Below are positions 631 to 17,149 of a DNA stretch of 17,149 nucleotides, in pieces. The stretch is from NCBI GenBank assembly GCA_035288405.1, contig DATEAK010000219.1:1-17149 (forward strand), written 5' to 3'. Numbering within the stretch: the first letter of the stretch is position 1; each line of letters starts with the position of its first letter. The position numbers were made by a program, and so were the translations under genes. This stretch comes from JACPSX01 sp035288405 [NCBI: bacterium]. Lineage in GTDB: Bacteria > JACPSX01. The notes beneath the pieces are model-generated. The model was not told where the DNA came from. It searched no databases and was given only the letters and a program-made list of their open reading frames with translations.

Positions 631-1884
631 ATGGAAGAAAAATACGTAGATATGAGAGAACACCTACCCCAACTTTCCCTTAAAGAAAGAAATAGACGGT
701 GGGCTGCAGTTTGGGAGGAGATGGGCTTGAACGAATTAGACTGTCTTCTTCTCATAGGGAATGATCGTTTCTTCGGATTGGGAGATACCAATTGCAGGTA
801 TTTGACCCAAATTTCGGGACAAAGGATGGGTACTGTTGTCATCTTCCCGTTACAAGGCACTCCCATCGTTTTTGCTGCTCCGCCTCATATGCATGACAAA
901 CCCTTCCCAGTTTACAAAGCCTTTAACGATTGGATAACCGAGACCAGGTGCTTACCAGGTCTGAAACCAGTTGTTGAATCATTGAAAACCATGGGGTATG
1001 AACAGGGAAATATTGGTTTGGTCGGATTCACGGGGGGTTTCAGAAGTAGTACCATTTCTTATCAAGAATATCAATTTTTGCTGAAAGAATTACCCAAGGC
1101 CAATTTTATTGAGGCGGGGCATATATTAGACAGGATTCGCATGATTAAAAGCTTAGAAGAGATCCAGATGTTGAAGAAATCAGGAGAAATTGCCCGTCTA
1201 AAGATTGAGGCTATGATAGAAATGGCAGTACCCGGAGTAAAGGAATGTGAGCTCTATGCCGAAATGGTAAAAAGGGAAATTAGTCATGGAGGCGAGGCTT
1301 TCGTATTCAATTTGCTTGCTTCAGGGTCAATAACTGATTCAGAACATATCCAACATCTTCTCCACGGAAGGGGTCAGCCTCTCTCTCCTACTACCCGCAC
1401 TTTAAAAAAAGGTGATTTAATTATTACTGAATTTCACACTAGTTACGGAGGGTATTTAACGGCTTGTGAAAAATCTGTATTTATTGGTAAACCACCAAAA
1501 GAACTTCAGCGAATCCATGATATTGCTGTTGAATGCGCTGAAATGGGAATCCAAAAATTAAGACCTGGAGTAACTATAGGGGAAGCGGCGGAGGCTTTTC
1601 GAGAGCCAGTAAGAAGGGCCAATATGGATTATATCGAATTGGGATTTCATGGTCATGGTATGGCATCTCCAGAATTCCCTTTTATAGTCTACGAGAAATT
1701 TGGAGAGTATGGTTCAGCCTCTATCGAGCTAAAAGAAAACATGGTATTTGGAACTAATATTGATATCCATGACCCATGCTGGCGAAAGGATGTAGGAATT
1801 ATGGGGCCGGGGGATACCATTTGGATTACCGCAAAGGGGCCAGTCAAACTAATTGAAACACCTCTCGAATTCGCTACAACCTAA
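631..1884 (+). CDS. M24-family (creatinase/Xaa-Pro peptidase-like) protein with lost metal ligands
   Basis: This 417-residue protein has the two-domain layout of creatinases and prolidases: an N-terminal creatinase-type domain (about 15-165) and a pita-bread M24 domain (about 175-405). The second begins with the usual IRMIKSLEEIQMLKKSGEIA helix. True M24 peptidases bind two metals through Asp, Asp, His, Glu and Glu. Here the corresponding positions read E267 (in ITEFH), A278 (in GYLTACEKS), H342 (in GHGMA), N376 (in FGTNIDIH) and G394 (in GPGDT). Only the His is kept, so a metallopeptidase is unlikely. A metal-independent hydrolase like creatinase, or another activity, fits better. The start is supported by AAAGGAGGG 8 bases upstream. 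The gene is markedly AT-rich compared with the F420 genes to the right, which suggests separate origin. It stands alone, with about 300 non-coding bases after it. Confidence 0.82.
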   Translation: MEEKYVDMREHLPQLSLKERNRRWAAVWEEMGLNELDCLLLIGNDRFFGLGDTNCRYLTQISGQRMGTVVIFPLQGTPIVFAAPPHMHDKPFPVYKAFNDWITETRCLPGLKPVVESLKTMGYEQGNIGLVGFTGGFRSSTISYQEYQFLLKELPKANFIEAGHILDRIRMIKSLEEIQMLKKSGEIARLKIEAMIEMAVPGVKECELYAEMVKREISHGGEAFVFNLLASGSITDSEHIQHLLHGRGQPLSPTTRTLKKGDLIITEFHTSYGGYLTACEKSVFIGKPPKELQRIHDIAVECAEMGIQKLRPGVTIGEAAEAFREPVRRANMDYIELGFHGHGMASPEFPFIVYEKFGEYGSASIELKENMVFGTNIDIHDPCWRKDVGIMGPGDTIWITAKGPVKLIETPLEFATT

Positions 1885-3447: not shown

Positions 3448-3506
3448 GCCAACCCCTCGCGGACGAGCGGAGGCTCAGAAGCGATTCATAGAAAGGAAAA
3501 AGTCGA

Positions 3507-4955
3507 ATGGGAAGCGAAGACCTACGTCAATATCTTAAACGCATCGAAGCTGCCGGCAAACTCAAGAGAATCAGTAAAGAGGTGGACGGCGACTGGGAAC
3601 TCTCCGGTATCTCCCGCTCAGTTTGGAAGCGCTTTAGCGATCGTCACCGCTTTGCACTCTTGTTCGAAAACGTGAAGGGCCACCACGGACAGCGGGTAGT
3701 TGTGGGAGCCTTTGGCCAATCTCGAGACCTATACGCGATGGCCTTGAATGTCACGCCTGATCGCATTCACGAAAGATGGTCTCAAGCGCTGAGTAGCCCT
3801 CTAATGCCTGTCATGGTGGGATCCGGTCCAGTAAAGGAAAATATCTTCAAGAATGATGACGTAGACCTTTTTCAGCTACCTATGAGCAAATGGCACCCCT
3901 TCAATAAGGCCCCTTACATCACAGCGGGAAGTGCGGTCACTAAGGATCCTGACTCAGGATGGTGCAATGTAGGAACTTACGCAAGTATGCTGGTCAACAA
4001 GAACTTGCTGACTCTTCGCGGTGGCTTCTACCAGCATATGGCGCTCCACTATGAGAAGTACGAACAACGAGACCAGGAGATGCCGATTGCAGTGGTCGTC
4101 GGTCCTCCTCCGGTAGTTGGCATGGCTTCTGTTGCTGAAGTACCTTACGGTGTCGAAGAGTATGCTGTCGCTGGTGGTTTGCAAGGAGAGCCAATCAAGC
4201 TAGTGAAGTGTGAGACCATCGACCTGGAAGTTCCGGCGGATGCAGAAATTGTTATCGAAGGAGTGGTGCCACCTCACGTGCGTGAGTCTGATGGACCACA
4301 TGTAGACCATTGTGGGTTTCAGTTGCCGGTTCGTCAGATGCGCCGCTTCGAAGTCAGATGTATCACCCACCGAAACCAGCCTATTTACCAGGAATATGAT
4401 GAGGGGCTTCCACCAAACGAGAGCACCATTATAAGAGGTATTGGCCTCGAAGCCATTCTCTGGCACAAGCTGGAAAGAGGGCTTGGGTTGACGGGAATCA
4501 GAGGGATACGTGCGACAGAGGGTTCTGCAGGTTGGGGCACCTGGATTGTGGCAATCGATAAATTTACCGACGCGGACCCCGCTCGCGTGGCTGCTGGACT
4601 GCTAGCTGGAAGCTGGTGTGGGAAGAGGGTAATCGTGGTCGACAGCGACATAGATATCTATGACGATACCGAGATAGAATGGGCTCTCGCCTTTTGTGTT
4701 CGATGGGATCGGGATATGTTCCTGTTTCCGCGCCTCGGATACCATCCCCTAGATCCGTCAATTGCTTCTCACGAACAGCATATTGGAGGGGTAGCTACGC
4801 AGGCCATTGGGAGTAGGATTGACTGGCCTCCGGCCATCGTTATTGACGCTACGAAAAAATCGTGGTTCCCGAAGGTTGGAAAGTATCCACAGGAAACCTA
4901 CCGTGCGGTTGAGGAGAGGTGGAAAGATTATGGGTTACCTCCCCTTGACAAATGA
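3507..4955 (+). CDS. UbiD-family (prenylated-FMN) decarboxylase homologue with altered active site
   Basis: This 482-residue protein is of normal length for UbiD. Classic family blocks are present: TKDPDSGWCNVGTYASML (145-162), MPIAVVVGPPPVVGMAS (192-208), GVEEYAVAGGLQGEPIKLVK (215-234), ETIDLEVPADAEIVIEG (236-252) and DGPHVDHCGF (262-271). UbiD enzymes reversibly decarboxylate aromatic or unsaturated acids with prenylated FMN. Residues aligning with the metal/cofactor ligands of Fdc1 are kept (N154, H177, and E217 or E218). The catalytic Arg that follows NVGTY in UbiD is A159 here, the Glu of the EGPFGE motif is D262, and the earlier Glu aligns near H257. The usual Glu-Arg-Glu network is therefore missing, so activity or substrate may differ from textbook UbiD. 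AAAGGA about 9 bases upstream supports the start. No UbiX-type prenyltransferase gene is in the window. Confidence 0.88.
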   Translation: MGSEDLRQYLKRIEAAGKLKRISKEVDGDWELSGISRSVWKRFSDRHRFALLFENVKGHHGQRVVVGAFGQSRDLYAMALNVTPDRIHERWSQALSSPLMPVMVGSGPVKENIFKNDDVDLFQLPMSKWHPFNKAPYITAGSAVTKDPDSGWCNVGTYASMLVNKNLLTLRGGFYQHMALHYEKYEQRDQEMPIAVVVGPPPVVGMASVAEVPYGVEEYAVAGGLQGEPIKLVKCETIDLEVPADAEIVIEGVVPPHVRESDGPHVDHCGFQLPVRQMRRFEVRCITHRNQPIYQEYDEGLPPNESTIIRGIGLEAILWHKLERGLGLTGIRGIRATEGSAGWGTWIVAIDKFTDADPARVAAGLLAGSWCGKRVIVVDSDIDIYDDTEIEWALAFCVRWDRDMFLFPRLGYHPLDPSIASHEQHIGGVATQAIGSRIDWPPAIVIDATKKSWFPKVGKYPQETYRAVEERWKDYGLPPLDK

Positions 4956-5246
4956 GCTGGGGCGAATGCTCCAGTGCCCAGGGTTCTTGGACGATATGCA
5001 AACATGCTATGGTTCTAAATACTATATACTATGATTCATACTCTCGGCGGTCCCTTGCCCGATACCGGATTCCGCTATGAAGGTATACCTTGGACAAACC
5101 GCGAGATATTTCCCTCAGCCCGATTTCCCTTTCGAGCTTTGGGACCTAATAAACCATGAAGCGTGGAATCAGATATTGAATAAAAGCAAGGGGGGAAAAG
5201 TTCGGTTGACAGACCCGGAGGGTACGGATGTGAGCTTTACCCTCCC
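4956..5246 (+). pseudogene. Decayed gene in three frames (possibly M29 aminopeptidase-like)
   Basis: Protein-like reading continues after the UbiD stop but switches frame twice. The first piece, in the frame of 4954, includes GFLDDMQTCYGSKYYIL and ends at a TGA at 5032-5034. The second, in the frame of 5031, reads TLGGPLPDTGFRYEGIPW and then TNREIFPSARFPF. The third, in the frame of 5122, reads FPFELWDLINHEAW and then KVRLTDPEGTDVSFT, up to the transposase remnant. The FPF is shared by the last two frames, placing a one-base shift at about 5121-5134. The sequence VRLTDPEGTD recalls the GTD motif region of aminopeptidase T/M29-type proteins, but that family call is weak. The start and the C-terminal half are missing, the latter replaced by insertion-sequence DNA. 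Confidence 0.45.
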
Positions 5247-5472
5247 CCCGGGCCAGCTCCACTATCCGCCTGGGGATCTCTCGGGGAAGCTTCCGATCCG
5301 AGCGACGGCCTCGATTGCCATGGATGACCCCTTTGATTCCCTCCTTTCTGATCCAGGCCTTGATCCGATAGGTGTGGCGCTCAGAGAGCCCAAGCACCAG
5401 GGCCGCCTCGGCCATCGTCATCTCCCCTCTAAAGACCCTCTGGATAACTTCCACTCGCTTCTGCTCTCTCAT
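5146..5472 (-). pseudogene. N-terminal remnant of an ISNCY-like transposase
   Basis: The minus-strand frame begins MREQKRVEVIQRVFRGEMTM and continues with a helix-turn-helix, AEAALVLGLSERHTYRIKAW, then IRKEGIKGVIHGNRGRRSDR. This is the typical N-terminus of transposases of the ISNCY group and similar helix-turn-helix DDE enzymes. Similarity ends at about residue 75 (near position 5247), after PRRIVELARG. The following residues to the stop at 5146 are read from the opposite strand of the decayed plus-strand gene. Full-length family members are about 400 residues or more, so the catalytic DDE domain is absent and the element cannot move by itself. It interrupts the sequence between the UbiD gene and the ABC operon. 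Confidence 0.7.
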
Positions 5473-5533: not shown

Positions 5534-5676
5534 GAATTACTTTGCTACCACATAGGGGAAAATGCTTATTGTTTAACCATCCATTATGTACTAAAGTTTC
5601 TGCCTCCGTGTGCGCCGTTTGAGGTATAGAACCAGAGACAAGGGATATGGAAGAAATCAGCACCGATTTACGTCCA

Positions 5677-5683
5677 GGGAGGG
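5677..5683 (+). promoter_or_regulatory. Ribosome-binding site that fixes the permease start
   Basis: GGGAGGG lies 5 bases before the ATG at 5689. The upstream in-frame ATG at 5647 has only AAGGG three bases away and would add a polar 14-residue leader in front of the first membrane segment. The 5689 start is therefore preferred. Confidence 0.55.
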
Positions 5684-5688
5684 TCGGA

Positions 5689-7419
5689 ATGATCCGCCAT
5701 CTTAACATCGGCATCAGGCACGTTCTGCTCATGCTCAGTGCAGTTCCTGCCTTCATTATTCTTCTCCTTGTCGCTTTGATTCTTTGGGTGGGGCTCGTAA
5801 AAGATGTGAATTCCGGCATCTTCAGTAGCGGCATGACCCTGGATCACTACCGGGCCCTGCTGGCGGATCCGCTGATCTACCGAGCCGTATTCAACACGGC
5901 GGAGTTTACCCTGGTGGCTATGAGCGTGGCCTTTGGGATAGGCGTTCCTCTGGCCTGGCTGGCTGAGAGGTCCAGTCTTCCGGGGAAGGGGGTTATTTAT
6001 GTTTTGATGGTCTCCGGGTTGCTCATTCCCGGCGCGTTTATCGCAATGGGGTGGGTGTTTCTCTTTCATCCGGAGATCGGGATCATCAACACGGCAGTGC
6101 GGAGCCTGGTGGGATCGGACCACAGTGTGATAAATATCGTCACGGTTCCTGGAATGGGCATTATCCAGGGACTCAATTTGGTTCCCGTGGTTTTCATCAC
6201 CCTTGGACCCGGCTACCGGGCGATGAACCCCGCCGTCGAAGAGGCCGCGCGAGTCCACGGCTTGAGCTTGCTGGGAACGCTGCACCGAATTTCTCTCCCC
6301 TTGCTTCTGCCTTCCATCATGGGGGCCTTTCTCTACGTCCTTACCATTGCCATCGCCGCCTTCGACATCCCTGCCATTATCGGACTGTCGAACCGGATAC
6401 TTACCTTCAGCACCTTTGTCTATATCAGCGCGAATCCCCGGGAAGGGTTGCCGAACTACGGGGTCGTCGGTGCGCTGAGTAGTGTGATGATCTTTTTTGC
6501 GCTTTTGTCCTGCTGGATGTACGTGAGCGTTCTGAAGCGCTCTTACAAGTACGCGGTCGTGACCGGGCAGGGGTACAGCTCCCGGCTGGTGAAACTTCGG
6601 GGTAAGACGGTTGCCGTTGTCTGGATCCTGATCGGTCTTTATTTCTTTTTTACCATTGTCATGCCGGTGCTCGTTCTAGCTTGGGCTTCAGTGATGCGCT
6701 GGTTCCGGCCGCCGTCGCTTTCCGCTTTGAAGCTCGCTTCGCTGGGGAATTTCCGGGACGTGGATTGGAGCATGGTCCTTGTGGGGGCAAAGAATTCCGC
6801 AGTGCTGATGCTGCTCGTACCGACTTTGGTGCTCGTTTTCAGCGGCGCGATTGCCTGGATCGTCGTGCGTTCGCGCTTTCACGGAAAAGTGGCGCTGGAT
6901 TTCAGCGCGTTTGTCCCCCATGCGGTACCGCATATCATTTTTGCATTCAGCATTCTGGTCGCGGCTTTGTTTCTTTTGCAGAAAATCCTGCCGATCTACG
7001 GCAAACTCACGATTCTCATCGTCGTATACACCTTGGTGTGGCTGGCCTTCGGCACGCGCGTCCTCAGCAGTTCCCTCGTGCAACTCCACAAAGAGCTCGA
7101 AGAAGTAGGACGTGTGAGCGGCATTCCCGGTCGAGTCATCCTGTGGAAAATTGTGCTGCCTCTTTTGCGGCCCGCAATTTTGTCCTGTTGGCTGTGGATG
7201 GCGCTTCTTACCTTCAGAGAATTTACCATGGCTGCCATGTTGGCTACCACCCGTTACAACATGACGCTGCCCATCGTGATCTGGTCCTACTGGAGCGGCG
7301 GGCAGAGCGGCCGGGCCTCCGCGGTGGCACTGATCGGATTCCTCATCCTGGTGCCGATGGTGGCCGCTTACTGGATCATCGGCCGGCGGTTTACGGCCCA
7401 TGGGATGACAAGGGCGTAA
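5689..7419 (+). CDS. ABC transporter permease, fused two-domain (ferric/thiamine-type, FbpB-like)
   Basis: This 576-residue inner-membrane protein carries two tandem permease domains, each with about six hydrophobic segments. The first domain is preceded by a helix at about 12-36. Each domain ends with the cytoplasmic EAA loop that docks onto the ATPase: EEAARVHGLSLLGTLHRISL at about 184-203 in the first, and EEVGRVSGIPGRVILWKIVL at about 471-490 in the second. This fused layout is typical of the ferric iron, thiamine and 2-aminoethylphosphonate importers (FbpB, ThiP, PhnV-like). It is the first gene of an operon continuing with the ATPase at 7491 and the binding protein at 8657. Several long frames on the other strand and in other frames are shadows of this GC-rich gene. 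Ligand unknown. Confidence 0.9.
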   Translation: MIRHLNIGIRHVLLMLSAVPAFIILLLVALILWVGLVKDVNSGIFSSGMTLDHYRALLADPLIYRAVFNTAEFTLVAMSVAFGIGVPLAWLAERSSLPGKGVIYVLMVSGLLIPGAFIAMGWVFLFHPEIGIINTAVRSLVGSDHSVINIVTVPGMGIIQGLNLVPVVFITLGPGYRAMNPAVEEAARVHGLSLLGTLHRISLPLLLPSIMGAFLYVLTIAIAAFDIPAIIGLSNRILTFSTFVYISANPREGLPNYGVVGALSSVMIFFALLSCWMYVSVLKRSYKYAVVTGQGYSSRLVKLRGKTVAVVWILIGLYFFFTIVMPVLVLAWASVMRWFRPPSLSALKLASLGNFRDVDWSMVLVGAKNSAVLMLLVPTLVLVFSGAIAWIVVRSRFHGKVALDFSAFVPHAVPHIIFAFSILVAALFLLQKILPIYGKLTILIVVYTLVWLAFGTRVLSSSLVQLHKELEEVGRVSGIPGRVILWKIVLPLLRPAILSCWLWMALLTFREFTMAAMLATTRYNMTLPIVIWSYWSGGQSGRASAVALIGFLILVPMVAAYWIIGRRFTAHGMTRA

Positions 7420-7490
7420 GGGTCGTGATCCCCGGGGACAGGATGCATCGAACTGTTTCCGCATTCTTGTAAAGTTGCAGGGGATCGAGC

Positions 7491-8561
7491 GTGATTGAAA
7501 TCCTGGGAGTGAGCAAAGTCTTTCGGGTGGGAACAAAGCAGGTCCACCCGCTGCGAAACGTGACACTCGACGTCCGGGAAGGCGAGTTTTTCGTTCTTCT
7601 GGGGCCTAGCGGTTCCGGAAAAAGCACTTTGCTCCGCTGTGTGAGCGGTTTGGAAGAACCCGACGAGGGGGAGATTTTGTTGGACGGCCGCGTGGTTTTC
7701 TCCAAATCGAAGGGGATCGTCCTGGATCCCGCGGACCGAGGAATCGGAATGGTGTTTCAGTCTTATGCGATCTGGCCTCATTTGAGCGTACTTGATAACG
7801 TCACCTTGCCGCTCATTCGCGGAAAAAAGCGGATGCCCAGGCGCCTGGCCGTCGAAAAAGGCCGGGAAGTCCTCAAGCTCGTGCAAATGGACACTCTGAT
7901 GGAGAGACCCGCTTCATTGCTGAGCGGCGGACAGCAGCAACGAGTCGCCGTGGCCCGCGCATTGTCCATAGAACCGAAGGTCTTGCTCATGGACGAGCCT
8001 CTGAGCAATCTCGATGCGCGCATGCGGGAAGAAGTCCGGGAGGAAATTAAGAACCTGACTCGGCAAATCGGGATTACGGTGCTCTACATCACCCATGATC
8101 AGATCGAAGCGATGGCTCTGGCCAGCCGCATCGCGGTTTTGGCCAACGGGGAAGTTAAGCAGGTGGCCTTGCCGAGAGAAGTCTACAAGAAGCCCGCGAG
8201 TCATGAAGTGGCCACCCTCTTGGGGACAATTAACTGGCTGTCGGGAAGGGTCATTCGCGACGGGGTCGTAGAGACTCCTATCGGAGAAGTTCGGATCGGC
8301 ACGGAAGGGCTCCGAAACAACGATAAGATTTTATTGGGAATCCGGCTTGAGCATCTTTGCGTGGCCTCAACCGGTGCGGCTGTGGAGAACGAGTTCCCGG
8401 CCGAAGTGATATCGCAAACGTTTTTGGGTGATCAGATCTGGTATCACCTTCGAGTCGGCTCGACTCGGATGGTATGGAAAACCTTTGCCGACGTCGATCT
8501 GCCCAAAACCGTTTACGCCAGGCTCCCGAAAGAAAAGATATTGGTTTTTGGAGAGGGATGA
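7491..8561 (+). CDS. ABC transporter ATP-binding protein (FbpC/PotA-like)
   Basis: This is the 356-residue nucleotide-binding subunit that powers the importer. Motifs are complete: Walker A GPSGSGKST (38-46), Q-loop FQSYAIWPH (Q90), signature LSGGQQQRVAVARAL (144-158), Walker B VLLMDEP (164-170), D-loop SNLDA, and the switch His in YITHDQ (H202). The region after about 235 looks like a TOBE-type domain, as in polyamine, iron and maltose importers, where it can contact ligand or regulators. The gene starts with GTG. AGGGG about 7 bases upstream is a modest ribosome site, and 71 bases separate it from the permease stop. All essential catalytic residues are present, so an active ATPase is expected. 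Confidence 0.93.
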   Translation: MIEILGVSKVFRVGTKQVHPLRNVTLDVREGEFFVLLGPSGSGKSTLLRCVSGLEEPDEGEILLDGRVVFSKSKGIVLDPADRGIGMVFQSYAIWPHLSVLDNVTLPLIRGKKRMPRRLAVEKGREVLKLVQMDTLMERPASLLSGGQQQRVAVARALSIEPKVLLMDEPLSNLDARMREEVREEIKNLTRQIGITVLYITHDQIEAMALASRIAVLANGEVKQVALPREVYKKPASHEVATLLGTINWLSGRVIRDGVVETPIGEVRIGTEGLRNNDKILLGIRLEHLCVASTGAAVENEFPAEVISQTFLGDQIWYHLRVGSTRMVWKTFADVDLPKTVYARLPKEKILVFGEG

Positions 8562-8656
8562 AATTCGGATCGTTCGGCCCAGTAAGCCGGGAGGAAAATC
8601 GCCTAGTTCGTGCAGAGACAAAGCCGTTTGAAACGGCTTGGAGAAGAGGAGGCGCA

Positions 8657-9751
8657 ATGAGTCGGAAAATCGCATTATGGGTTCTTTTCGCGTGTCTACT
8701 GCCCGGGGTCATTTACGCACAGTCCTCGGTTCCTTCCAAGTCCGCCGCGCCCACGCTGGCCAGTATTATTGCAGGGGCCCGGCGTGAAGGGCGCCTGGAT
8801 CTGGTCTGGTCCGAGAGCTCCATGGGAGGGTTTAAGGGGACGGCGGCTCTCGAGAAGCTCATTAACCAGAAGTACGGCCTCAATCTTAAATTTAATTTTA
8901 CGGCGGGGCCGGATATGACTCTGATGGCCACTAAGGTCCTCCAGGAAAACAAGGCGGGTGTTGCCGCGACGAGCGATGTCTACCTCGGAAACGGGGCTCT
9001 CTTTGCGCCTTTGTATAAAGCGGATGTCCTGCTTCCCGTGGAGTGGAGAAATCTGTTCCCCTACTTTCCGGAGAAGGCGGTGGAGTTAGGGGGACGGGCG
9101 CTGTGGGTTTGGTCCGGCGACCGAGGGATCGACTACAACACGAATCTCGTGGCGCCTGCGGATGTTCCCAAGAATACGACCGACATTTTCAACCCCAAAT
9201 GGAAGGGGAAAATCGCCTCTACGCCGTATGCGGCGGGTTTTGATCGCTGGGCGGATATGATCGGTGAGGAGAAGGTGGATGCCTTCATGGAGGTATTTGC
9301 CAAGGAGTATGTGAGAGGGCTCATTCGCTGCGCGGGAGAAGAAGAGAGAGTGGCGCGGGGCGAATTTGCCATGCTCGTGTTTAACTGCTCCAACAATGAG
9401 GTTCTACTCCTGAAAGAAGCCGGGGCACCAATCGATTATGTGATTCCTCGGGACGCCGCCATGCTGTCCCCCTTCTATATGGCGGTTCCCAAGCACGCGG
9501 CTCACCCGAACGCGGCCATGCTTTACCTGGCGGCCTTGCAGACCAAGGAAGGGCAGGACATCATCTGGAACTTCTCCCGGTCGGGATCCCACTTTGTCAA
9601 GGATTCGAAATACTCGCTCTGGTTCGAGAAAGAATTCAAAGACGTAAAAAACATCAAGATATTTACGGCGGAATATCTGGTCGAGCACGGAGACCGTTTG
9701 CAGAAAATCTTGAGCAAGTACCGGGCGATGTTGCTGGGCGGGAAGAAGTAA
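8657..9751 (+). CDS. ABC transporter periplasmic substrate-binding protein (second paralogue)
   Basis: This 364-residue binding protein closes the ABC operon. A signal peptide spans residues 1-21 (hydrophobic core ALWVLFACLLPGVIYA, cleavage likely after Ala21). The open frame extends back to 8474 inside the ATPase gene, but GAGGAGG just before the ATG at 8657, together with the signal peptide, fixes the real start. It shares long stretches with the protein at 2192-3280, for example NQKYGLNLKF, EWRxLFPY, VELGGR, NPKWKGKIASTPYAAGF, GEEKVDAFM, GEFAMLVF and EHGDRLQKIL. The fold is that of ferric/thiamine/phosphonate-type binding proteins, and the ligand is unknown. Its place after the permease and ATPase makes it the cognate receptor of this importer. 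Confidence 0.92.
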   Translation: MSRKIALWVLFACLLPGVIYAQSSVPSKSAAPTLASIIAGARREGRLDLVWSESSMGGFKGTAALEKLINQKYGLNLKFNFTAGPDMTLMATKVLQENKAGVAATSDVYLGNGALFAPLYKADVLLPVEWRNLFPYFPEKAVELGGRALWVWSGDRGIDYNTNLVAPADVPKNTTDIFNPKWKGKIASTPYAAGFDRWADMIGEEKVDAFMEVFAKEYVRGLIRCAGEEERVARGEFAMLVFNCSNNEVLLLKEAGAPIDYVIPRDAAMLSPFYMAVPKHAAHPNAAMLYLAALQTKEGQDIIWNFSRSGSHFVKDSKYSLWFEKEFKDVKNIKIFTAEYLVEHGDRLQKILSKYRAMLLGGKK

Positions 9752-9846
9752 GAGTCCTATTTCCGATTTCTTTCGGGCCTGCCGTAAGAGAGGCGCATCC
9801 CGAGGACGAGTCGCGATTACTTTGACAATCTGAAGGAGGAAGGATC

Positions 9847-10884
9847 ATGGTAGAGATCGGTTTTGCGTTTACAATCGGCAGCAACATCGACGAGCCGATG
9901 CGACAGGACTTCGCTGTGACCATGGAGGAGATGGGCTATAACTCCATGTGGATTCCCGGGTTCATCTCCCGTGAGATCCACGGCTACGACATGCTGGACA
10001 TCATATCGGCGCTCGCGGTGCGCACCAAGCGCATCAAGCTCGGCACGATCGTGCTGCAGGTGCCACTCTACCATCCGGTCGATCTGGCAAGACGGATCGT
10101 GACCGTGGACCATCTCTCCAACGGCCGCTTTATTTTTGGAGTGGGGGTCGGCGGGCACCCGACGGAGTTCGAGCATATGGGAGTCCCCTATGAGTCGCGG
10201 GGCCGGAGGACGGATGAAATCCTGGAGATCATGCGGCGGCTCTGGACGGAGGAGGAAGTCACCTTTAAGGGGGAGTTCTACAACCTGAAAGGGGTTGTGC
10301 AAAAGCCGAAATCGATTCAGAAGCCCCATCCCAAGATCATCGTCGGCGGCGGCTTCCATGGATCCGCCGCCCGCTTTGCGCCGGATGCAGGACTCTCGGG
10401 AGGCTTTGCCAGCCGCTGGCTGAAGCGCGCCGCCCGCTGGGACGGCTGGCTTCCGGGCGGGCCGTTGACGCTCAGTGAACAGGATGCACAGACTCTCAAG
10501 GAAGGAATGAAACAAATCAAGGCGGTCGCCCAGGCAAACGGCCGGACGATCAAGGATGAGGACTACGATCTCACGGTAGCCTGCTTCGGCTTGTTCAATA
10601 TCAACGACGATATGAACCAGGTGCGCAGGGAAGTTTCGGACTGGTACAACGCGCGGGTGGCAAGAGGATACCATCAAGTCCAGGGGAACCCGAGCCTTGA
10701 GGGACTGGAAAAGTCCGGCGGGTTCGGCTCACCGGAAGTCGTGGCGAAAGTTCTGAACCGGTGGCTTCGCCTGATGAATGATGTCCCGGCCGCCAAGAGA
10801 ATAGCGATCTTGTTCGCCTCGCTCAATCCGCTGCAGCAGCTGGAGAAATTCAACACGCAGGTGAAACCCCTGCTGGAACTCTAA
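9847..10884 (+). CDS. Luciferase-like (LLM class) F420-dependent oxidoreductase
   Basis: This 345-residue protein has the TIM-barrel bacterial luciferase fold. Recognisable blocks are MGYNSMWIPGF (29-39), a LGTIVLQVPLYHPVDLAR strand-helix (65-82), TVDHLSNGRFIFGVGVGG (86-103), EFEHMGVPYESRGRRTDEIL (107-126) and the beta strand KIIVGGGF (163-170). F420-dependent members of this family catalyse hydride transfer to or from many substrates. Use of F420, rather than FMN, is inferred from family resemblance and from the F420 biosynthesis genes downstream. AAGGAGGA gives a strong ribosome site. The following gene starts 15 bases after its stop, indicating co-transcription. The large antisense frame over this gene is a shadow. 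Confidence 0.88.
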   Translation: MVEIGFAFTIGSNIDEPMRQDFAVTMEEMGYNSMWIPGFISREIHGYDMLDIISALAVRTKRIKLGTIVLQVPLYHPVDLARRIVTVDHLSNGRFIFGVGVGGHPTEFEHMGVPYESRGRRTDEILEIMRRLWTEEEVTFKGEFYNLKGVVQKPKSIQKPHPKIIVGGGFHGSAARFAPDAGLSGGFASRWLKRAARWDGWLPGGPLTLSEQDAQTLKEGMKQIKAVAQANGRTIKDEDYDLTVACFGLFNINDDMNQVRREVSDWYNARVARGYHQVQGNPSLEGLEKSGGFGSPEVVAKVLNRWLRLMNDVPAAKRIAILFASLNPLQQLEKFNTQVKPLLEL

Positions 10885-10899
10885 GGACGGTGTACATTG

Positions 10900-11853
10900 A
10901 TGAAACCTCGGCTGAATTTAAAATTAATGGGTGACTGGGGCAACGCGAATTTCCACATCATCGTCGGGTGGATTGCCGCGAACCTGCGCTGGCGCAGCGC
11001 TCCGGGATCGGAATTCCTCATTTACACGGGTACGGGCTATCGCGACAACATCGACGCGGTGGCCAAGGGACTGGTTGATCTTGCTGTGACCACGCCGGCG
11101 GACGTCTGCTTGGAATGGGCAAGGGCGGGCAAGTATTTCTTCGAGGGGACGCCGTATCCGCATTTGCGCGCTCTCGGATATATCCCGCAAGACGACCGTC
11201 TTGTTTTCGCGGTGCGCGCGGACACGGGGATCACTTCCTTCGCGGATTTGAAAAGCCGCCGCTATCCTTTGCGGATCGCCACCACCTGCCGGGACCCTCT
11301 CAATTTGATGAGCTACGCGGTCGAGCAGGTGTTTCGAGCTCACGGAATCGGCCCCAAGGATATCGAGAGCTGGGGCGGGAAATGGCTGGAGCACGATCAT
11401 CCGCGCAAATGCCTGACCTGGGTAACCCGGGGCGAAGCGGACGCGGCTTTCAACGAGGGGATCATGGTCCCGCAATGGTATGAACTGGTGAAAACCGTTC
11501 CGATGCGTTTCGTGCCTATGGAATCGGAAGCGCTCCGGGAGCTGGAGTCAATGGGACTGCGTCCCGCCGTTCACAAAAAAGAGCGGTTCAATTCGGAACA
11601 GGACGTTGCGTGCCTGGACTGGTCTCACTGGGCGATTGTGGTGCGCGAGGACATGTCCGAAGACATTGCGCATCTGCTCACGGCGGTGATGGTGGAAGAG
11701 CGCAGTGAATTGGAGTCCCGCTATCGCCATCTACCCCCCGAGCGCAGCCCGATGACTTATCCGATCGATCCGTATACCATGTGGAAGGGGCTCGGAGCTC
11801 CGCTGCACTCCGGGGCCGAACGTTATTATCGCGAAAACGGGTATATGAGTTAA
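10900..11853 (+). CDS. TAXI/NMT1-type substrate-binding-like protein without a signal peptide
   Basis: About 317 residues with the type II periplasmic-binding-protein look of the TAXI (TRAP-associated) and NMT1 groups: an early LKLMGDWGNANFHI, then GTGYRDNIDAVAKGLVDLAV (about 44-63), a switch into TTPADV, and later DLKSRRYPLRIATT, the usual second-lobe entry. The N-terminus MKPRLNLKLMGDWG has no hydrophobic export signal, and no TRAP membrane subunits are nearby, so a cytoplasmic role is likely. Binding-protein folds are known as cytoplasmic enzymes in MqnA/MqnD and in 4,5-dihydroxyphthalate decarboxylase, so enzymatic or ligand-delivery roles are both possible. A TTG three bases earlier (10897) could also start it; AAGGA overlaps the preceding stop. 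It sits between two F420-type oxidoreductases. A decayed relative lies at 3325-3447. Confidence 0.72.
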   Translation: MKPRLNLKLMGDWGNANFHIIVGWIAANLRWRSAPGSEFLIYTGTGYRDNIDAVAKGLVDLAVTTPADVCLEWARAGKYFFEGTPYPHLRALGYIPQDDRLVFAVRADTGITSFADLKSRRYPLRIATTCRDPLNLMSYAVEQVFRAHGIGPKDIESWGGKWLEHDHPRKCLTWVTRGEADAAFNEGIMVPQWYELVKTVPMRFVPMESEALRELESMGLRPAVHKKERFNSEQDVACLDWSHWAIVVREDMSEDIAHLLTAVMVEERSELESRYRHLPPERSPMTYPIDPYTMWKGLGAPLHSGAERYYRENGYMS

Positions 11854-11906
11854 ACTACGTTTAGGATACGGGAAGGAAAACGGATCCTTCAATAGGTAGA
11901 GGGAAC

Positions 11907-13100
11907 ATGAGCAATCCAAGCTTCAAAGACATGATGAATGAGGTGGTGGCTTATGGGAGCTGCTGCGAGTGCGGGAGCTGCGTGCTGGTGTGCCCCCACA
12001 ACGTGATTGATTATGTGGATTCCAAACCCAAGCAGGTGGCGAAAAAAAACGGCCCCTTTGATTATTGCGGGATCAGCGAGGGGATCGGGTGCGATGTGTG
12101 TGCCCAGGCCTGTCCCCGGCTCTATCCCCGGGAGCACCACCTCAGAGATGCGGTGTTCGGCGCGGACAAGCCATACCAGGCGAACTTCGGAGTTTACCGC
12201 CGGGTCGTGGTGGCCCGCTGCAACGATGCCGGAATCCTGAACCTTTGCCAGGACGGCGGAGTCGTCACGACGCTTCTGGTGTGGGCGCTGCGCAGGGGGT
12301 TGATTGACGGCGCTGTGGTCTCCGTCCTGGATGGGAATACGCGTTGCAATCCGGTTCCCAAGGTGGTGACCACGGAGGAGGAGATCATCGCCGCCGGAGG
12401 GTCCTGGTACACCTATGTGCCCAATAATCTGGCTCTAGCCGATGCTCTGGAGCGGGGGTTGAAGAAGGTGGCCTTTGTGGGGGTTCCTTGTCAGGTGACC
12501 CCGCTGCGCAAGCTGGAGACGGTGGACCCGGGTTTTTTGGACAACGGCCGCAAGAAAGAGAAACACATAAGCCAGCAGCGCAAATTTCTCAAGGGGTTTT
12601 CCGACATTGTGAGTTTGAACCTGGGCCTGTTTTGCACGGAGGTGTTCAGCTATGACGGGCTGATGGTGGACAAGATTGAGAGGGAGATGGGCATTCCCCT
12701 TGAAGACGTCCGGAAGTTTAACGTCAAGGGTGAGGTGCTCATCTACAAGAAAGACGGCAGCGTGGCGAATCTGAGCCTGAAGGATTCTCAGGAATATGTG
12801 CGGCCCGAGTGCCATCACTGTGCCGACTTTTCTGCCGAGCTGGCGGACATATCCTTTGGCGGTGCGGGCCTCATGGGATGGACAATCGTCGTGATCAGGA
12901 CCCCCAGAGGCGAAGAAGCGTTTTCCCAACTTGAAAACGAGGGACTGATCGAGATCCATCCCATTGAGGAATATGAACGCAATCGCAAGATTGTGGTGCG
13001 TCTGACCCGGAAGCAAAGGGAGCGGGTTCCGATTCCCCCGGGGAAGGAAGAGTCCTTTATTCGGGACCCCGCAAGTCCTGTTCCTGCGCCGCAGAAGTAA
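11907..13100 (+). CDS. Ferredoxin-FrhB/FdhB-type coenzyme F420 oxidoreductase
   Basis: This 397-residue protein belongs to the coenzyme F420 hydrogenase/dehydrogenase beta-subunit family. The N-terminus has two ferredoxin-like iron-sulfur motifs: C19xxC22xxC25xxxC29P, and a second reading C62xxC65xxxC69P with C54 as the probable fourth ligand. The FrhB N-terminal domain follows with DGGVVTTLLVWAL (116-128) and GGSWY. The C-terminal domain has GVPCQ (C194), GLFCTE (C243) and ECHHCADFSAELADISFGG (C302, C305), the family's extra cluster and flavin region. Relatives use FAD and iron-sulfur clusters to pass electrons between F420 and ferredoxin, a hydrogenase, formate dehydrogenase or another partner. 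The partner here is unknown. The start has AGAGGG nearby, 53 bases after the previous gene. A hairpin follows its stop. Confidence 0.88.
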   Translation: MSNPSFKDMMNEVVAYGSCCECGSCVLVCPHNVIDYVDSKPKQVAKKNGPFDYCGISEGIGCDVCAQACPRLYPREHHLRDAVFGADKPYQANFGVYRRVVVARCNDAGILNLCQDGGVVTTLLVWALRRGLIDGAVVSVLDGNTRCNPVPKVVTTEEEIIAAGGSWYTYVPNNLALADALERGLKKVAFVGVPCQVTPLRKLETVDPGFLDNGRKKEKHISQQRKFLKGFSDIVSLNLGLFCTEVFSYDGLMVDKIEREMGIPLEDVRKFNVKGEVLIYKKDGSVANLSLKDSQEYVRPECHHCADFSAELADISFGGAGLMGWTIVVIRTPRGEEAFSQLENEGLIEIHPIEEYERNRKIVVRLTRKQRERVPIPPGKEESFIRDPASPVPAPQK

Positions 13101-13110
13101 GGCCGGCCCC

Positions 13111-13131
13111 GCAATTCCGGCAAGGAATTGC
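13111..13131 (+). terminator. Hairpin after the FrhB-type gene (possible terminator)
   Basis: GCAATTCC and GGAATTGC form a perfect 8-bp stem with a 5-base loop (GGCAA), with further CCC/GGG pairing outside past a bulge. It begins 11 bases after the stop at 13100. No T-run follows, so intrinsic termination would be inefficient; attenuation or mRNA stabilisation are alternatives. It separates the oxidoreductase genes from cofD. Confidence 0.4.
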
Positions 13132-13297
13132 CGGGCGGTTGCAGGAGAGGACTATGAGTCGCCTCCAAATTCGTGCAACCATTTTATCTTGCGGTAGATA
13201 GGGAAAGCCCTTAAAATGCTGTGTGTGCCGACTTAGTGACCCACAGCACCAATTCCTTCTTCGGAAGTGAAAAGTTTCCAGGAACTCCGGGGGGCTA

Positions 13298-14236
13298 GTG
13301 ATTACACTGCTTGCGGGTGGAACCGGTGCGGCAAAGCTTGTGGATGGCTTGATTCAGGAAACTGATCCCGCCGATCTGACCCTTGTCTGCAATACGGGAG
13401 ACGACGTTCAACTCTTTGGTCTTCACATCTCCCCGGACGTGGACACGAATCTCTATACATTGGCCGGAATCATCGACTGGGAAAAAGGCTGGGGGATTTC
13501 CGGAGACTCATTTTTTTGCATGGATTCCCTGGGAAAGCTAGGATACGAAATCTGGTTTCGCCTCGGGGATCGAGACCTGGCGACCCATCTTTCCCGTTCA
13601 TTGGAGCTTCGCGGTGGGCGGACCCTGTCTGAGACTATTGAATCTCTGTGTCGCGCTTTGGGCTTGAAAACAAGGCTTCTCCCCATGAGTAATGATCCGG
13701 TGGAAACCCGCGTGGTGACGGCGGGAGGTGACCGTCATTTCCAGGAATTTTTCGTGAAGGGAGCCTGGCAGGAAGAGGTCTGCTCGGTTTACTTCAAGGG
13801 AGCAGAGGCGGCGCAACCGGCACCCGGAGTTATTGCGGCCATTCTGGAAGCCCAAGCGGTCATCCTTTGTCCCAGCAACCCGGTGACCAGTCTGGGACCG
13901 ATCCTTGCCGTTCCCGGGATACGGAAGGCTTTGTCGGATACCCAAGCGCCTGTGTTGGCCGTGAGCGCCATTGTGGGCGGGCAGCCGGTCAGCGGTCCTG
14001 CACATAAGCTCATGGCAGCCCGAGGGTGGGAGGTCTCCGCTTTGGGTGTAGCTCGAGCTCTGAAAGACGTGGCCGATTTCCTCGTCATCGATTCGATCGA
14101 TCGGGATCAGGCATCCGCGATTTCCGCTCTGGGTCTCGAAGTTCTGGTAACAGAAACCGTCATGAGAAATCGGGACGATCGCAGAAGACTGGCAAGAGGG
14201 ATTTTAGAGAACCTCGGAGTGGAGCGGCAGCAATGA
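13298..14236 (+). CDS. cofD: 2-phospho-L-lactate transferase (CofD/FbiA), F420 biosynthesis
   Basis: CofD joins the activated lactyl or enolpyruvyl phosphate group, delivered as a GDP ester, to the deazaflavin FO, giving F420-0 or its dehydro form. The 312-residue sequence carries the family signatures: LLAGGTGAAKLVDGL (4-18), CNTGDDVQLFGLHISPDVDT (31-50) for FO and metal binding, LPMSNDPVETRV (128-139), and CPSNPVTSLGPIL with PGIRKAL in the second half. The start is GTG at 13298, preceded by a G-rich stretch and no classic ribosome site. It opens a tight block: its stop overlaps the cofC start by four bases (ATGA). Length is normal for CofD/FbiA. Confidence 0.95.
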   Translation: MITLLAGGTGAAKLVDGLIQETDPADLTLVCNTGDDVQLFGLHISPDVDTNLYTLAGIIDWEKGWGISGDSFFCMDSLGKLGYEIWFRLGDRDLATHLSRSLELRGGRTLSETIESLCRALGLKTRLLPMSNDPVETRVVTAGGDRHFQEFFVKGAWQEEVCSVYFKGAEAAQPAPGVIAAILEAQAVILCPSNPVTSLGPILAVPGIRKALSDTQAPVLAVSAIVGGQPVSGPAHKLMAARGWEVSALGVARALKDVADFLVIDSIDRDQASAISALGLEVLVTETVMRNRDDRRRLARGILENLGVERQQ

Positions 14237-14943
14237 TCGCAGCCCTGATTCCCTTGAAAGATCCGGAGAAATCCAAGCAGCGCCTGTCCGACCTGCTGGT
14301 TGCTGAAGAGCGTTATGAGTTAGCCCTGGCCATGCTCAAAGACGTAGTGGCTGCCGTTGTGGAAGCAAGTAGGATCCAGCGCACCATCATCCTCGGAGGC
14401 GGAGAAGCGGCTGCTCGGGTGGCGCGCTTATCGGGCTGCGAGTTCATTCCAGACTGGGACAACCGCGGGGAGACGGAAGCCGTAGCCTTGGGAACCCAGG
14501 CCTTGCAGGGAAGTGTGGACGGTCTTCTGGTCCTTCCTGCCGATGTGCCCCTGGTACGCCCGGAAGACGTGGATGCTCTGGTGAGCAAGTCGGATGAGGG
14601 CGCTCGGGTGGTCCTCTGCCCGGCCCGGGATGGTTGCGGTACCAATGGAGCTTTGCGCTGCCCCGGGGAAATCATGCCTCTCACGTTCGGCAACAACAGC
14701 TTCCACCCTCACTACAATCTGGCACTTCAACTCGGGATTCCCTTAGCCGTAGTCGAACTCCCCCGCCTTGGCCTGGATCTGGACCGTCCAGAGGACGTGG
14801 CCACCTATATCCGCGAATCCCACAGCGGTGAAACGCACCGGTATCTGACTTCCATTAGGGTCGACAAGAGACTTTCCCGGTGGAACTCCCAGGTCCGGTC
14901 ATTCTCGAATCAGAGGAATTACGATGGTGTCATTTCGACTTGA
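14233..14943 (+). CDS. cofC: 2-phospho-L-lactate/phosphoenolpyruvate guanylyltransferase (CofC/FbiD)
   Basis: CofC activates phospholactate, or phosphoenolpyruvate or 3-phosphoglycerate in some bacteria, with GTP for CofD. The 236-residue protein has the nucleotidyltransferase blocks ALIPLKDPEKSKQRLS (4-19), LVLPADVPLV (99-108), DGCGTNGAL (133-141), FGNNSFHPHY (152-161) and LDLDRPEDV (181-189). The open frame extends upstream to 14026 inside cofD, but the ATGA overlap at 14233 and the family's start at the first beta strand fix the real start. The tail after PEDVATYI is long, and its last residues are read from bases that also encode the start of cofE. The acceptor preferred cannot be decided from sequence. 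Confidence 0.93.
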   Translation: MIAALIPLKDPEKSKQRLSDLLVAEERYELALAMLKDVVAAVVEASRIQRTIILGGGEAAARVARLSGCEFIPDWDNRGETEAVALGTQALQGSVDGLLVLPADVPLVRPEDVDALVSKSDEGARVVLCPARDGCGTNGALRCPGEIMPLTFGNNSFHPHYNLALQLGIPLAVVELPRLGLDLDRPEDVATYIRESHSGETHRYLTSIRVDKRLSRWNSQVRSFSNQRNYDGVIST

Positions 14944-15679
14944 AATTATCGGGATCGAGCACATTCCGGAGGTTCACTACGGCGATAACGTGGCCGCGCT
15001 TATCGTGGAAGCTTGTCGCCAGGAGAAGGTTTCTCTGTCTTCGGGTGATATTCTGGTGGTGGCTCATAAGATCGTCTCCAAGTCCGAGGGGCGCATTGTT
15101 CAGCTCAGCGAGGTAACCCCATCTTCTTTTGCGCACACCGTTGCGAAGCAGACGGGGAAAGATCCCCGGGCCGTGGAGGTGGTGTTGCGGGAATGCCGCC
15201 GCATCGTGCGGATGGACCACGGGGTTCTCGTGGTGGAGACGCATCATGGCTTTATCTGTGCCAACGGCGGAGTCGATTCCTCCAATGTCGGGCCCGGCCG
15301 GGTGGCCTTGCTCCCCAAGGATCCGGACGCATCGGCCGTGCAGATCCAGCGGGGGTTGCAGGAGCTGGCCGGGGTGCAAACGGCGGTCATCATCAGTGAC
15401 AGCTTTGGAAGGCCCTGGCGGGAGGGAACCGTCGATGTGGCCCTCGGAGTGGCAGGGCTGGAGCCTCTGATCGACTACCGGGGCAAGGAGGATCCCTTCG
15501 GCTACGAGATGAAAGCCTCCGTGGCTGCCGTAGCGGATGAGCTGGCCGGGGCCGGGGAGCTTGTTTTGGGCAAAACGCGCAAGGTCCCCGTTGCTCTGGT
15601 GAGGGGTTTTTCCACTCCGGGAGCGGAGGGGAAAGGAAGTCAGCTCATTCGATCGGCTGCAGCCGATATTTTTCGCTAG
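14924..15679 (+). CDS. cofE: Coenzyme F420-0:L-glutamate ligase (CofE)
   Basis: CofE adds L-glutamate residues to F420-0 in a GTP-dependent reaction, giving F420-1, F420-2 or longer tails. The 251-residue protein is the stand-alone form, without the C-terminal nitroreductase-like domain found fused in actinobacterial FbiB. Family motifs are AHKIVSKSEGR (47-57), NGGVDSSNVGPG (114-125), and SDSFGRPWREG (158-168), which contribute metal and GTP sites. It starts 20 bases before the end of cofC, with AGAGGA 6 bases upstream, so translation is probably coupled. Without the FbiB domain, reduction of any dehydro-F420-0 would need another enzyme if the pathway runs from phosphoenolpyruvate. Confidence 0.95.
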   Translation: MVSFRLEIIGIEHIPEVHYGDNVAALIVEACRQEKVSLSSGDILVVAHKIVSKSEGRIVQLSEVTPSSFAHTVAKQTGKDPRAVEVVLRECRRIVRMDHGVLVVETHHGFICANGGVDSSNVGPGRVALLPKDPDASAVQIQRGLQELAGVQTAVIISDSFGRPWREGTVDVALGVAGLEPLIDYRGKEDPFGYEMKASVAAVADELAGAGELVLGKTRKVPVALVRGFSTPGAEGKGSQLIRSAAADIFR

Positions 15680-15723
15680 AGAGGCTCAGTGCACTGAGCA
15701 GAACGGGCAAATGGAGGGGGAGT

Positions 15724-16419
15724 ATGAAAATTGCCATTCTGGGAGGGACTGGGAAGGAAGGCAAAGCTCTGGCCCGGCGCTGGGCCTTGAGGGGAAACGC
15801 GATTTTCATCGGGTCGCGACAGCGTGAAAAGGCGCTCCGTGTCGCCGAGGAACTTGCCCGGGAAATTCATGACGGCGATTTTCATGGAGGAACCAACGAC
15901 GAGACGGCAGAAAAAGGAGAAGTGGTCGTCCTTGCGGTTACCTCTAAGGGGCATCGTGCCTTGCTCTTGCAGATACGGGATCGGGTTCAGGGGAAGGTGG
16001 TGATTGATGTCGTCGTTCCCCTGCATCCGCAAGATCCGACCCGGCTTGTTTTTCCAGTAGAAGGTTCGGCGGCTCAGGAAGCTCAGGCCCTTCTGGGGCC
16101 GGGCGTGAGTGTCATCGGAGCTTTGCACAACCTTTCGGCTCATCGGTACGATGAGACCGAGAACCTAATCGATTGCGACGTGCTGGTGTGCGGAGATAAT
16201 GCCGCGGCCAAGCAAATTGTTCTCGATCTCGTGATCCAGCTCGGGGTGAGGGCTATCGACGCAGGGCCTCTGGAAAACGCCGCGGTCCTTGAGGGAATGA
16301 CTGCGGTTCTGCTCGGCATCAACAGACGCTATGGAGTGAAAGCTGCATGTGTGGAGATCAGCGGGCTACCGCACGTGCTTAAGCCGGTGGAGAACCGGCT
16401 CTCGCAAAAGAGTCACTGA
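15724..16419 (+). CDS. npdG: NADPH:F420 oxidoreductase (NpdG/Fno)
   Basis: This enzyme transfers hydride between NADP(H) and F420, and in bacteria it normally supplies F420H2 for biosynthesis or oxidoreductases. The 231-residue protein begins with the Rossmann motif AILGGTGKEGKALARRW (4-20). Next come IGSRQREKA (29-37), whose Ser and Arg suit the 2'-phosphate of NADP, then VVVLAVTSKGH and VVIDVVVPLHP. Later it has GALHNLSAHRY and a C-terminal helix region with GPLENAAVLEGMTAVLLGIN. GGAGGGGG immediately upstream is a strong ribosome site; 44 bases separate it from cofE. Its place inside the F420 block supports the role. Confidence 0.93.
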   Translation: MKIAILGGTGKEGKALARRWALRGNAIFIGSRQREKALRVAEELAREIHDGDFHGGTNDETAEKGEVVVLAVTSKGHRALLLQIRDRVQGKVVIDVVVPLHPQDPTRLVFPVEGSAAQEAQALLGPGVSVIGALHNLSAHRYDETENLIDCDVLVCGDNAAAKQIVLDLVIQLGVRAIDAGPLENAAVLEGMTAVLLGINRRYGVKAACVEISGLPHVLKPVENRLSQKSH

Positions 16420-16471
16420 CGAGTCTAATTCTCCAGCTGCTGATGGCGGCATGGGAAAAGACAGGAAAGAG

Positions 16472-17149
16472 ATGTCCAGCGGAGTCAAATTCGAGCCGAC
16501 GGTTGCAGAGATCCTCTCTAAGGTGAGAGAAGGGGAGACGATCACTCGGGAAGAGGCCCTTGTCCTGGGAGAGGTGGAAGGGGAAGAGTTTTCGTCTCTG
16601 CTGAAAGCGGCCAGGGATCTGGCCGACCGGCACAAGGGCAAGGCCATCAGCTATTCCCGCAAGGTGTTCATCCCTCTCACGAACCTCTGCCGCGACTACT
16701 GCGGCTACTGCACGTTTCGCCGGGATCCGGGGGACGTGGGGGCCAAAACGATGGCTCCCGATGAAGTTCTGGAGGTGGTCCACCGGGGTGCGGAATTGGG
16801 TTGCAAAGAAGCCCTGTTCAGTCTCGGGGACCGGCCCGAAGCTTTGTTCGCAGAAGCCCGGGACGAACTGAGACGATTGGGATTTCGCAGGACACTCGAT
16901 TATCTGGCGGCCGTGTGCCGTCTGGTGGCTGAGCAATCGCCCCTTTTGCCTCATGCCAACCCGGGTCTCCTGGGACCGCGGGATTTGCGGATGCTGCGCG
17001 AGGTGAACGTGAGCCTGGGTCTCATGCTGGAGAGTGTGAGCCCGCGTTTGCAGGAAGCTGGTGGAGCCCATGAAAACGCGCCCGATAAGCTTCCTTCCCG
17101 CCGGCTCCGCACTTTGGAAGAGGCCGGGCGCTTGCACATTCCGTTTACG
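16472..17149 (+). CDS. cofG: FO synthase, CofG part (radical SAM), 3' end outside the window
   Basis: CofG and CofH, separate or fused as FbiC, build the deazaflavin chromophore FO from tyrosine and a flavin precursor. The visible 226 residues hold the CofG radical-SAM start: SYSRKVFIPLTNLCRDYCGY, with cysteines C73xxxC77xxC80 for the iron-sulfur cluster. They also hold GDRPE (119-123), GLMLESVSPRL (183-193), GGAH, APDKLPSRRLRTLEEAG and HIPFT, all near-canonical. The frame is open to the window edge, so the stop is not seen. About 60 residues precede the radical-SAM core, as in FbiC, so either a CofG-only or a fused CofG-CofH protein is possible. AGGA 5 bases upstream favours the ATG at 16472; the in-frame ATG at 16451 is an alternative. 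Confidence 0.9.
   Translation, partial: MSSGVKFEPTVAEILSKVREGETITREEALVLGEVEGEEFSSLLKAARDLADRHKGKAISYSRKVFIPLTNLCRDYCGYCTFRRDPGDVGAKTMAPDEVLEVVHRGAELGCKEALFSLGDRPEALFAEARDELRRLGFRRTLDYLAAVCRLVAEQSPLLPHANPGLLGPRDLRMLREVNVSLGLMLESVSPRLQEAGGAHENAPDKLPSRRLRTLEEAGRLHIPFT

What the first reader, a model, noticed from the sequence alone, without database searches (positions are those of the whole stretch)
3963..4320. UbiD homologue with its Glu-Arg-Glu catalytic network apparently replaced
Seen in sequence: NVGTY is followed by Ala159, and the conserved EGPFGE block reads DGPHVDH (262-268). Known for Fdc1 and E. coli UbiD: an Arg follows N-x4, and two Glu, one of them in EGPFGE, form the decarboxylation network; Asn, His and Glu residues hold metal and prenylated FMN. 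Here the Asn (154), His (177) and Glu (217/218) survive while Arg becomes Ala, one Glu becomes Asp and the other aligns near His257. Inference: the protein may still bind prenylated FMN but use different chemistry, or be a non-catalytic partner subunit.
Basis: partly seen in the sequence, partly recalled or inferred. Interest (0 to 1): 0.68.

Follow-up and report, generated by a model that had tools for sequence, protein, structure and literature searches.

The report
UbiD-like enzyme missing its catalytic arginine
A bacterial gene encodes a protein that is clearly a relative of the UbiD decarboxylases, but a key active-site arginine is an alanine and both acidic partners are the shorter aspartate, so it is an odd, untested variant of a known enzyme family rather than a new kind of system.

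Summary
The ORF at 3507-4955 (+, 482 aa) is a full-length UbiD homologue. The published motif R-Xn-E-X4-(E/D) reads A159...D262-X4-D267: Arg to Ala, and both acidic positions are Asp; His257 is not involved. Asp at the second position is normal (E. coli UbiD has it), and single Glu-to-Asp mutants of Fdc1 stay partly active, so the Arg loss is the real anomaly. A further near-universal acidic residue is Asn133. Putative metal/phosphate residues N154, H177, E218 remain. Of 136 UbiDs aligned, window included, 6 lack the Arg; only the window is D-A-D. Its closest relatives (38-43% identity) keep E-R-E, and the other Arg-less protein of its clade lost the Arg separately, so no D-A-D clade was found. 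Departures concentrate in the active-site motif, not the framework, which argues against simple decay but does not exclude it. The gene lies beside a solute-binding protein and an M24 hydrolase, left of a synteny break. I favour a retained, remodelled UbiD paralogue; a carboxylate anchor at R171 is speculative. New variant of a known kind.

The parts
3507..4955 (+). UbiD-family protein, 482 aa, intact ORF
   Evidence: Pfam UbiD_N, UbiD and UbiD_C all above gathering cut-off; TIGR00148 281 bits against cut-off 244.85
3493..3498 (+). AAGGAA, Shine-Dalgarno-like, 8 nt before the ATG
   Evidence: read in the sequence printed
3981..3983 (+). Ala159 codon GCA at the catalytic Arg position (Fdc1 R173)
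   Evidence: Arg in 130 of 136
4290..4307 (+). DGPHVD (262-267) in place of EGPFGE; D262 = Fdc1 E277, D267 = Fdc1 E282
3903..3905 (+). Asn133 codon AAT where Asp or Glu stands in 133 of 136
3966..3968 (+). Asn154, putative metal/phosphate ligand (Fdc1 N168; label recalled)
4035..4037 (+). His177, putative metal ligand (Fdc1 H191; label recalled)
4158..4160 (+). Glu218, putative metal ligand (Fdc1 E233; label recalled)
4017..4019 (+). Arg171 at the Fdc1 Leu185 position (by equal spacing, inferred), candidate substitute basic residue
2192..3280 (+). Solute-binding protein SBP1, upstream of UbiD; 63% identical to the SBP2-type gene of the relative G126
631..1884 (+). M24 (creatinase/prolidase-like) hydrolase
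5146..5472 (-). Short HTH ORF with weak similarity to an IS481 leucine zipper, probable IS fragment
   Evidence: HTH_29 and HTH_28 above cut-off; LZ_Tnp_IS481 just below
5632..17149 (+). Stretch collinear with genome G126 contig C37 (82-88% nt); left of 5632 no nucleotide match in place

Best explanation
It is a retained, active-site-remodelled paralogue of the UbiD superfamily. Shown: fold family by sequence, full length, intact metal/phosphate-type residues, Arg to Ala, both Glu to Asp, framework no more eroded than in many other members. Inferred: it still binds FMN or prenylated FMN; Asp267 can still serve as acid-base; without Arg159 the oxidative maturation of prFMN and the usual carboxylate grip are weakened, so it works, if it does, on an unusual substrate, possibly with another basic residue (Arg171 is the candidate) as carboxylate anchor, or at low rate. 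With the neighbouring solute-binding protein and M24 hydrolase it would form an optional module for uptake and breakdown of a small organic acid. The substrate is not known.
For: Above-cut-off family matches over the full length. The window departs at 4 of 34 framework conserved columns, and 41 of 88 representatives depart at as many or more; it departs at 5 of 8 active-motif columns, which only 4 of 88 representatives match or exceed. Fdc1 E277D and E282D keep activity (kcat app 1.2 and 0.63 against 9.4 per s), while R173A matures its cofactor very slowly and has only low activity (PMC5818171, passages, Discussion). Solute-binding genes lie next to UbiD in G126 (L064) and binding-protein transporter genes lie near it in 4 of 8 annotated plasmid loci. 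R171 is present in both Arg-less proteins of the clade.
Against: No orthologue with the same residues was found, so selection on the D-A-D state cannot be shown. R171 also occurs where R159 is intact (E. coli UbiD, L147, L156, L157) and is absent from the other four Arg-less proteins (two of which have Lys at 159); I picked the position after seeing the sequence. The structure model failed (mean pLDDT 34), so no distances could be measured. No UbiX among the 13 window ORFs scanned, and none was found in G126, whose completeness is not stated.
Confidence: 0.45

Rival explanations
1. The gene has lost its function and is decaying in a variable segment beside an IS-like fragment; active-site residues changed first because selection for catalysis went first.
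For: Position left of a synteny break beside an IS-like fragment, GC lower than in the collinear part; end branch of 1.04 and 1.11 changes per column with no close relative; several active-site positions changed at once.
Against: Intact 482-aa frame with a Shine-Dalgarno-like site and coding-type codon-position GC (0.62, 0.42, 0.53); framework conserved columns at ordinary constraint; both acidic positions stayed acidic, which drift would not favour.
Confidence: 0.25
2. A prFMN- or FMN-binding protein with different, non-decarboxylating chemistry, or a pseudo-decarboxylase with a binding or regulatory role.
For: Fdc1 R173A shows a stable prFMN radical (PMC5818171); in the window Arg, acidic 133 and the F-G of EGPFGE are all changed while putative cofactor ligands remain.
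Against: No partner gene that points to it; no related clade with the same residues found; an acid-base carboxylate at 267 is kept.
Confidence: 0.22
3. An ordinary UbiD decarboxylase whose Arg is simply dispensable for its substrate; nothing mechanistically new.
For: E. coli UbiD itself has Asp at the second acidic position; single Glu-to-Asp changes are tolerated in Fdc1; D-R-E occurs in 3 of 136.
Against: In Fdc1, R173A has only low activity and R173K none detected; Arg in 130 of 136.
Confidence: 0.08

Closest known systems
HmfF-type UbiD, PDB 6h6v/6h6x (the name HmfF for 6H6V read in a passage of PMC8988006)
   Same: Best PDB match by sequence, E 2e-60 over residues 3-420
   Different: Has Arg at the A159 position, and EGPFGE
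Fdc1 (ferulic acid decarboxylase)
   Same: Family and spacing of the acidic pair (E-X4-E, here D-X4-D)
   Different: R173, E277, E282 against A159, D262, D267; the matching single mutants are weakened (E to D) or nearly inactive (R to A)
E. coli UbiD
   Same: Asp at the second acidic position; Arg at the +17 position
   Different: Has the catalytic Arg and the first Glu (E-R-D)
L067, UbiD paralogue of genome G126 (D-N-E)
   Same: Same 27-row clade, Arg lost, first Glu is Asp, Arg at +17
   Different: Separate loss: one clade with the window rejected, p-AU 0.0005, pair named after an earlier tree was seen; Glu kept at 267, Asp at the His177 position
L048 and L047, closest E-R-E relatives (G126, G143)
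   Same: 41-43% identical over the full length
   Different: Full E-R-E and EGPFGE

Membership tests
UbiD superfamily (by descent) | UbiD_N, Rift-related and C-terminal domains over the curated cut-off | tested here: met
UbiD superfamily (by descent) | Asn, His and Glu that hold metal and cofactor phosphate (Fdc1 labels recalled) | tested here: met
   N154, H177, E218 by alignment; the His column is variable in the family (80 of 135 others)
Canonical UbiD (de)carboxylase | R-Xn-E-X4-(E/D) motif | tested here: not met
   A159, D262, D267: only the last fits
Canonical UbiD (de)carboxylase | prFMN binding and (de)carboxylation | not testable with these tools
   needs purified protein
Canonical UbiD (de)carboxylase | UbiX flavin prenyltransferase available in the cell | tested here: inconclusive
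   None among the 13 window ORFs scanned; G143 has one; none found in G126, completeness unknown; own genome not held
Distinct D-A-D subfamily | Several relatives sharing A159, D262 and D267 | tested here: not met
   1 of 136 (the window itself); genome searches of 95, 388, 386 and 17 genomes, overlapping, gave no relative above 43% identity
Phenylphosphate carboxylase-like subunit | ppc-type operon with a second UbiD paralogue | tested here: not met
   No second UbiD among the 13 window ORFs scanned; PpcA and PpcB keep E-R-E

The most novel reading that the evidence does not exclude
A natural Arg-less prenylated-flavin protein that has taken up other chemistry, for example redox use of a stabilised prFMN radical, or action on a non-carboxylate substrate.
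Probability: 0.15. Interest if true: 0.7.

Novelty: new variant of a known kind. Interest (0 to 1): 0.35.

Why it matters
In PMC5818171 the Arg of the motif is held to affect prFMN maturation and substrate binding; that rests on mutants of Fdc1. A natural protein without it, if active, would show whether the Arg can be replaced and would test the mechanism. If inactive, it is one more degenerate paralogue, related to lineages very rich in UbiD genes.

Tried and rejected
Second Glu at or near His257, or E260 as substitute: rejected by alignment. Arg relocation to R171 as an established compensation: weakened. Within the 27-row clade 2 of 2 Arg-less and 3 of 25 Arg-bearing rows have Arg there; E. 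coli UbiD has it with its catalytic Arg; the four Arg-less rows outside the clade do not have it; the position was chosen after the fact. D-A-D clade: not found. A structure model was tried with the window protein and two relatives only: mean pLDDT 34, useless, no fold search made. Viral contigs: no relative with the protein or with the 20-row alignment. Genome contigs gave two relatives, both E-R-E. Plasmids gave 411 records, best 33% identical, of which I fetched 12 loci.

Papers: PMC5818171, passages and the Discussion; PMC8379154 and PMC8988006, passages only; others as listings. Searches for UbiD with Rokubacteria, Tectomicrobia or pseudoenzyme gave no paper; those for a non-conserved or lacking Arg, or for benzene carboxylase with Arg and Glu, gave nothing to the point in their listings. 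This covers only the held open-access library.

Rows dropped: ORFs under 380 aa, trimmed matches under 400 aa and rows with an identical core were left out of the 136. One search used an earlier alignment (122 rows; 75 representatives; 46 columns; 10 departures by the window); the later one (88 representatives; 42 columns; 9 departures). The first tree used 96 of 136 rows, the second 35 chosen rows without the catalytic columns. In one search two of the four representatives with as many motif departures (L140_p1, L137) are of the group that holds the EbN1 phthalate-type rows, whose block has an insertion, so their count is partly alignment. In one search, 20 and 70 only the best few candidates of each genome were scored.

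Full report
What is there. The ORF at 3507-4955 (+) encodes 482 aa with UbiD_N, UbiD Rift-related and UbiD_C domains, all above Pfam's cut-offs, and passes TIGR00148 (281 bits against 244.85). The best PDB match by sequence is 6h6x/6h6v (E 2e-60).

The active site. PMC5818171 (passages; Discussion) gives the family motif as R-Xn-E-X4-(E/D), in Fdc1 R173, E277, E282. In the window these are A159, D262, D267. The five HMMER alignments shown (three proteins, two of them in two versions; 40 sequences matched) have Arg opposite A159 and Glu opposite D262 and D267. E. coli UbiD, fetched from MG1655, reads E-R-D in the same alignment, as the paper says for the canonical enzyme.

What mutants predict. 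In Fdc1, E277D and E282D keep kcat app of 1.2 and 0.63 per s against 9.4. R173A matures its cofactor very slowly, shows a prFMN radical and has only low activity; no activity was detected for R173K. These are single mutants; the double Asp state was not reported in what I read. The expected defect of the window protein is therefore mainly that of the lost Arg. This is inference from another enzyme.

How rare. Six do not: D-L-N 2, Q-K-E 2, D-N-E 1 and D-A-D 1, the last being the window. Among 88 representatives under 60% identity (window not counted) 84 have Arg. Three further distinct sequences fetched later (L155, L156, L157) have Arg. The sample is weighted to two UbiD-rich genomes, G143 and G126, and to genomes of the phylum of L001, a Rokuibacteriota record; it is not a survey of the family. 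Position 133 is Asp or Glu in 133 of 136 and Asn in the window.

Decay or remodelling. Over 42 columns conserved in at least 80% of the 88 representatives, the window departs at 5 of 8 motif columns and 4 of 34 others (Fisher p 0.006); 41 of 88 representatives have as many or more framework departures, only 4 of 88 as many motif departures. The motif columns follow the literature, but threshold and grouping were mine. This fits selective change at the active site better than uniform decay. It cannot show that the gene is under selection, since no close orthologue was found.

Kinship. The closest relatives are L047 (G143) and L048 (G126), 41-43% identical, both E-R-E. With catalytic columns removed, the window is sister to 26 rows (bootstrap/SH-aLRT 98/98 for the 27-row clade, on an outgroup I chose; the split next to the root is weak, 61/80); 25 of the 26 are E-R-E and one, L067, is D-N-E. 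Holding L067 and the window together is rejected (p-AU 0.0005), though I named the pair after seeing the first tree and both have long branches. On the 96-row tree the six Arg-less rows need at least four changes. Arg loss is thus recurrent, and the window's appears to be its own.

A possible substitute. Fdc1 Leu185 is said to move away from the active site in R173A. By equal spacing, with the flanking Fdc1 labels partly recalled, it corresponds to window residue 171, an Arg. Both Arg-less proteins of the clade have Arg there, but so do three of the 25 Arg-bearing rows of the clade and E. coli UbiD, while the four other Arg-less rows do not. I keep it as a test, not a finding. The structure model was useless (mean pLDDT 34).

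Surroundings. From 5632 rightwards the window matches contig C37 of G126 at 82-88% nucleotide identity: permease, ATPase, SBP2, LLM oxidoreductase, TAXI protein, FrhB-like protein and F420 genes. CofE is 86% identical. Left of 5632 the collinear match ends; the one nucleotide match there is SBP1 to the SBP2-type gene. C37 runs on for about 6 kb beyond the break and then ends, and no UbiD match of the whole-genome search fell on it. In the window's left part lie the M24 hydrolase, SBP1 (63% identical to the SBP2-type gene of G126) and UbiD, of lower GC (42-52% against 55-61%), and an HTH ORF with weak IS481-type similarity at 5146-5472. G126 has at that place another M24 gene (29% identical to the window's), an NMT1-type binding protein with a similar gene beside it (the second read by eye), an ABC ATPase and, by eye, a permease. 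So UbiD sits in a variable, catabolic-looking module. A solute-binding gene next to UbiD is also seen in G126 (L064), and binding-protein transporter genes lie near UbiD in 4 of 8 annotated plasmid loci (not in 42, 43, 45, 49).

Verdict. Descent from the UbiD superfamily is clear; membership among canonical UbiD (de)carboxylases fails on the tested motif. It is best called a motif-deviant UbiD paralogue of unknown substrate.

Noticed in passing
genomes G143 and G126 (loci L047-L137): Large UbiD expansion: 60 match rows in a 4.5 Mb genome and 18 in a 2.9 Mb genome (a few rows are two pieces of one gene), with a single UbiX match in G143 and none in G126.
   Followed up: partly
L067, L128, L131, L133, L135: Other natural UbiD paralogues without the catalytic Arg (D-N-E, Q-K-E twice, D-L-N twice); with the window at least four changes on the tree.
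   Followed up: partly
9847-17149: F420 gene run: LLM oxidoreductase, TAXI-type binding protein, FrhB-like protein with Fe-S domain, CofD, CofC, CofE, NpdG and the start of a gene I take for CofG from recall, not scanned; collinear with G126.
   Followed up: no
5146-5472: Short reverse-strand HTH ORF, probably an insertion-sequence remnant, 160 bases left of the synteny break at 5632.
   Followed up: partly
L140 (Aromatoleum aromaticum EbN1 plasmid 2): Three UbiD genes, two UbiX genes, two CoA transferases and an ABC transporter together; one UbiD lies directly after the ABC genes.
   Followed up: no
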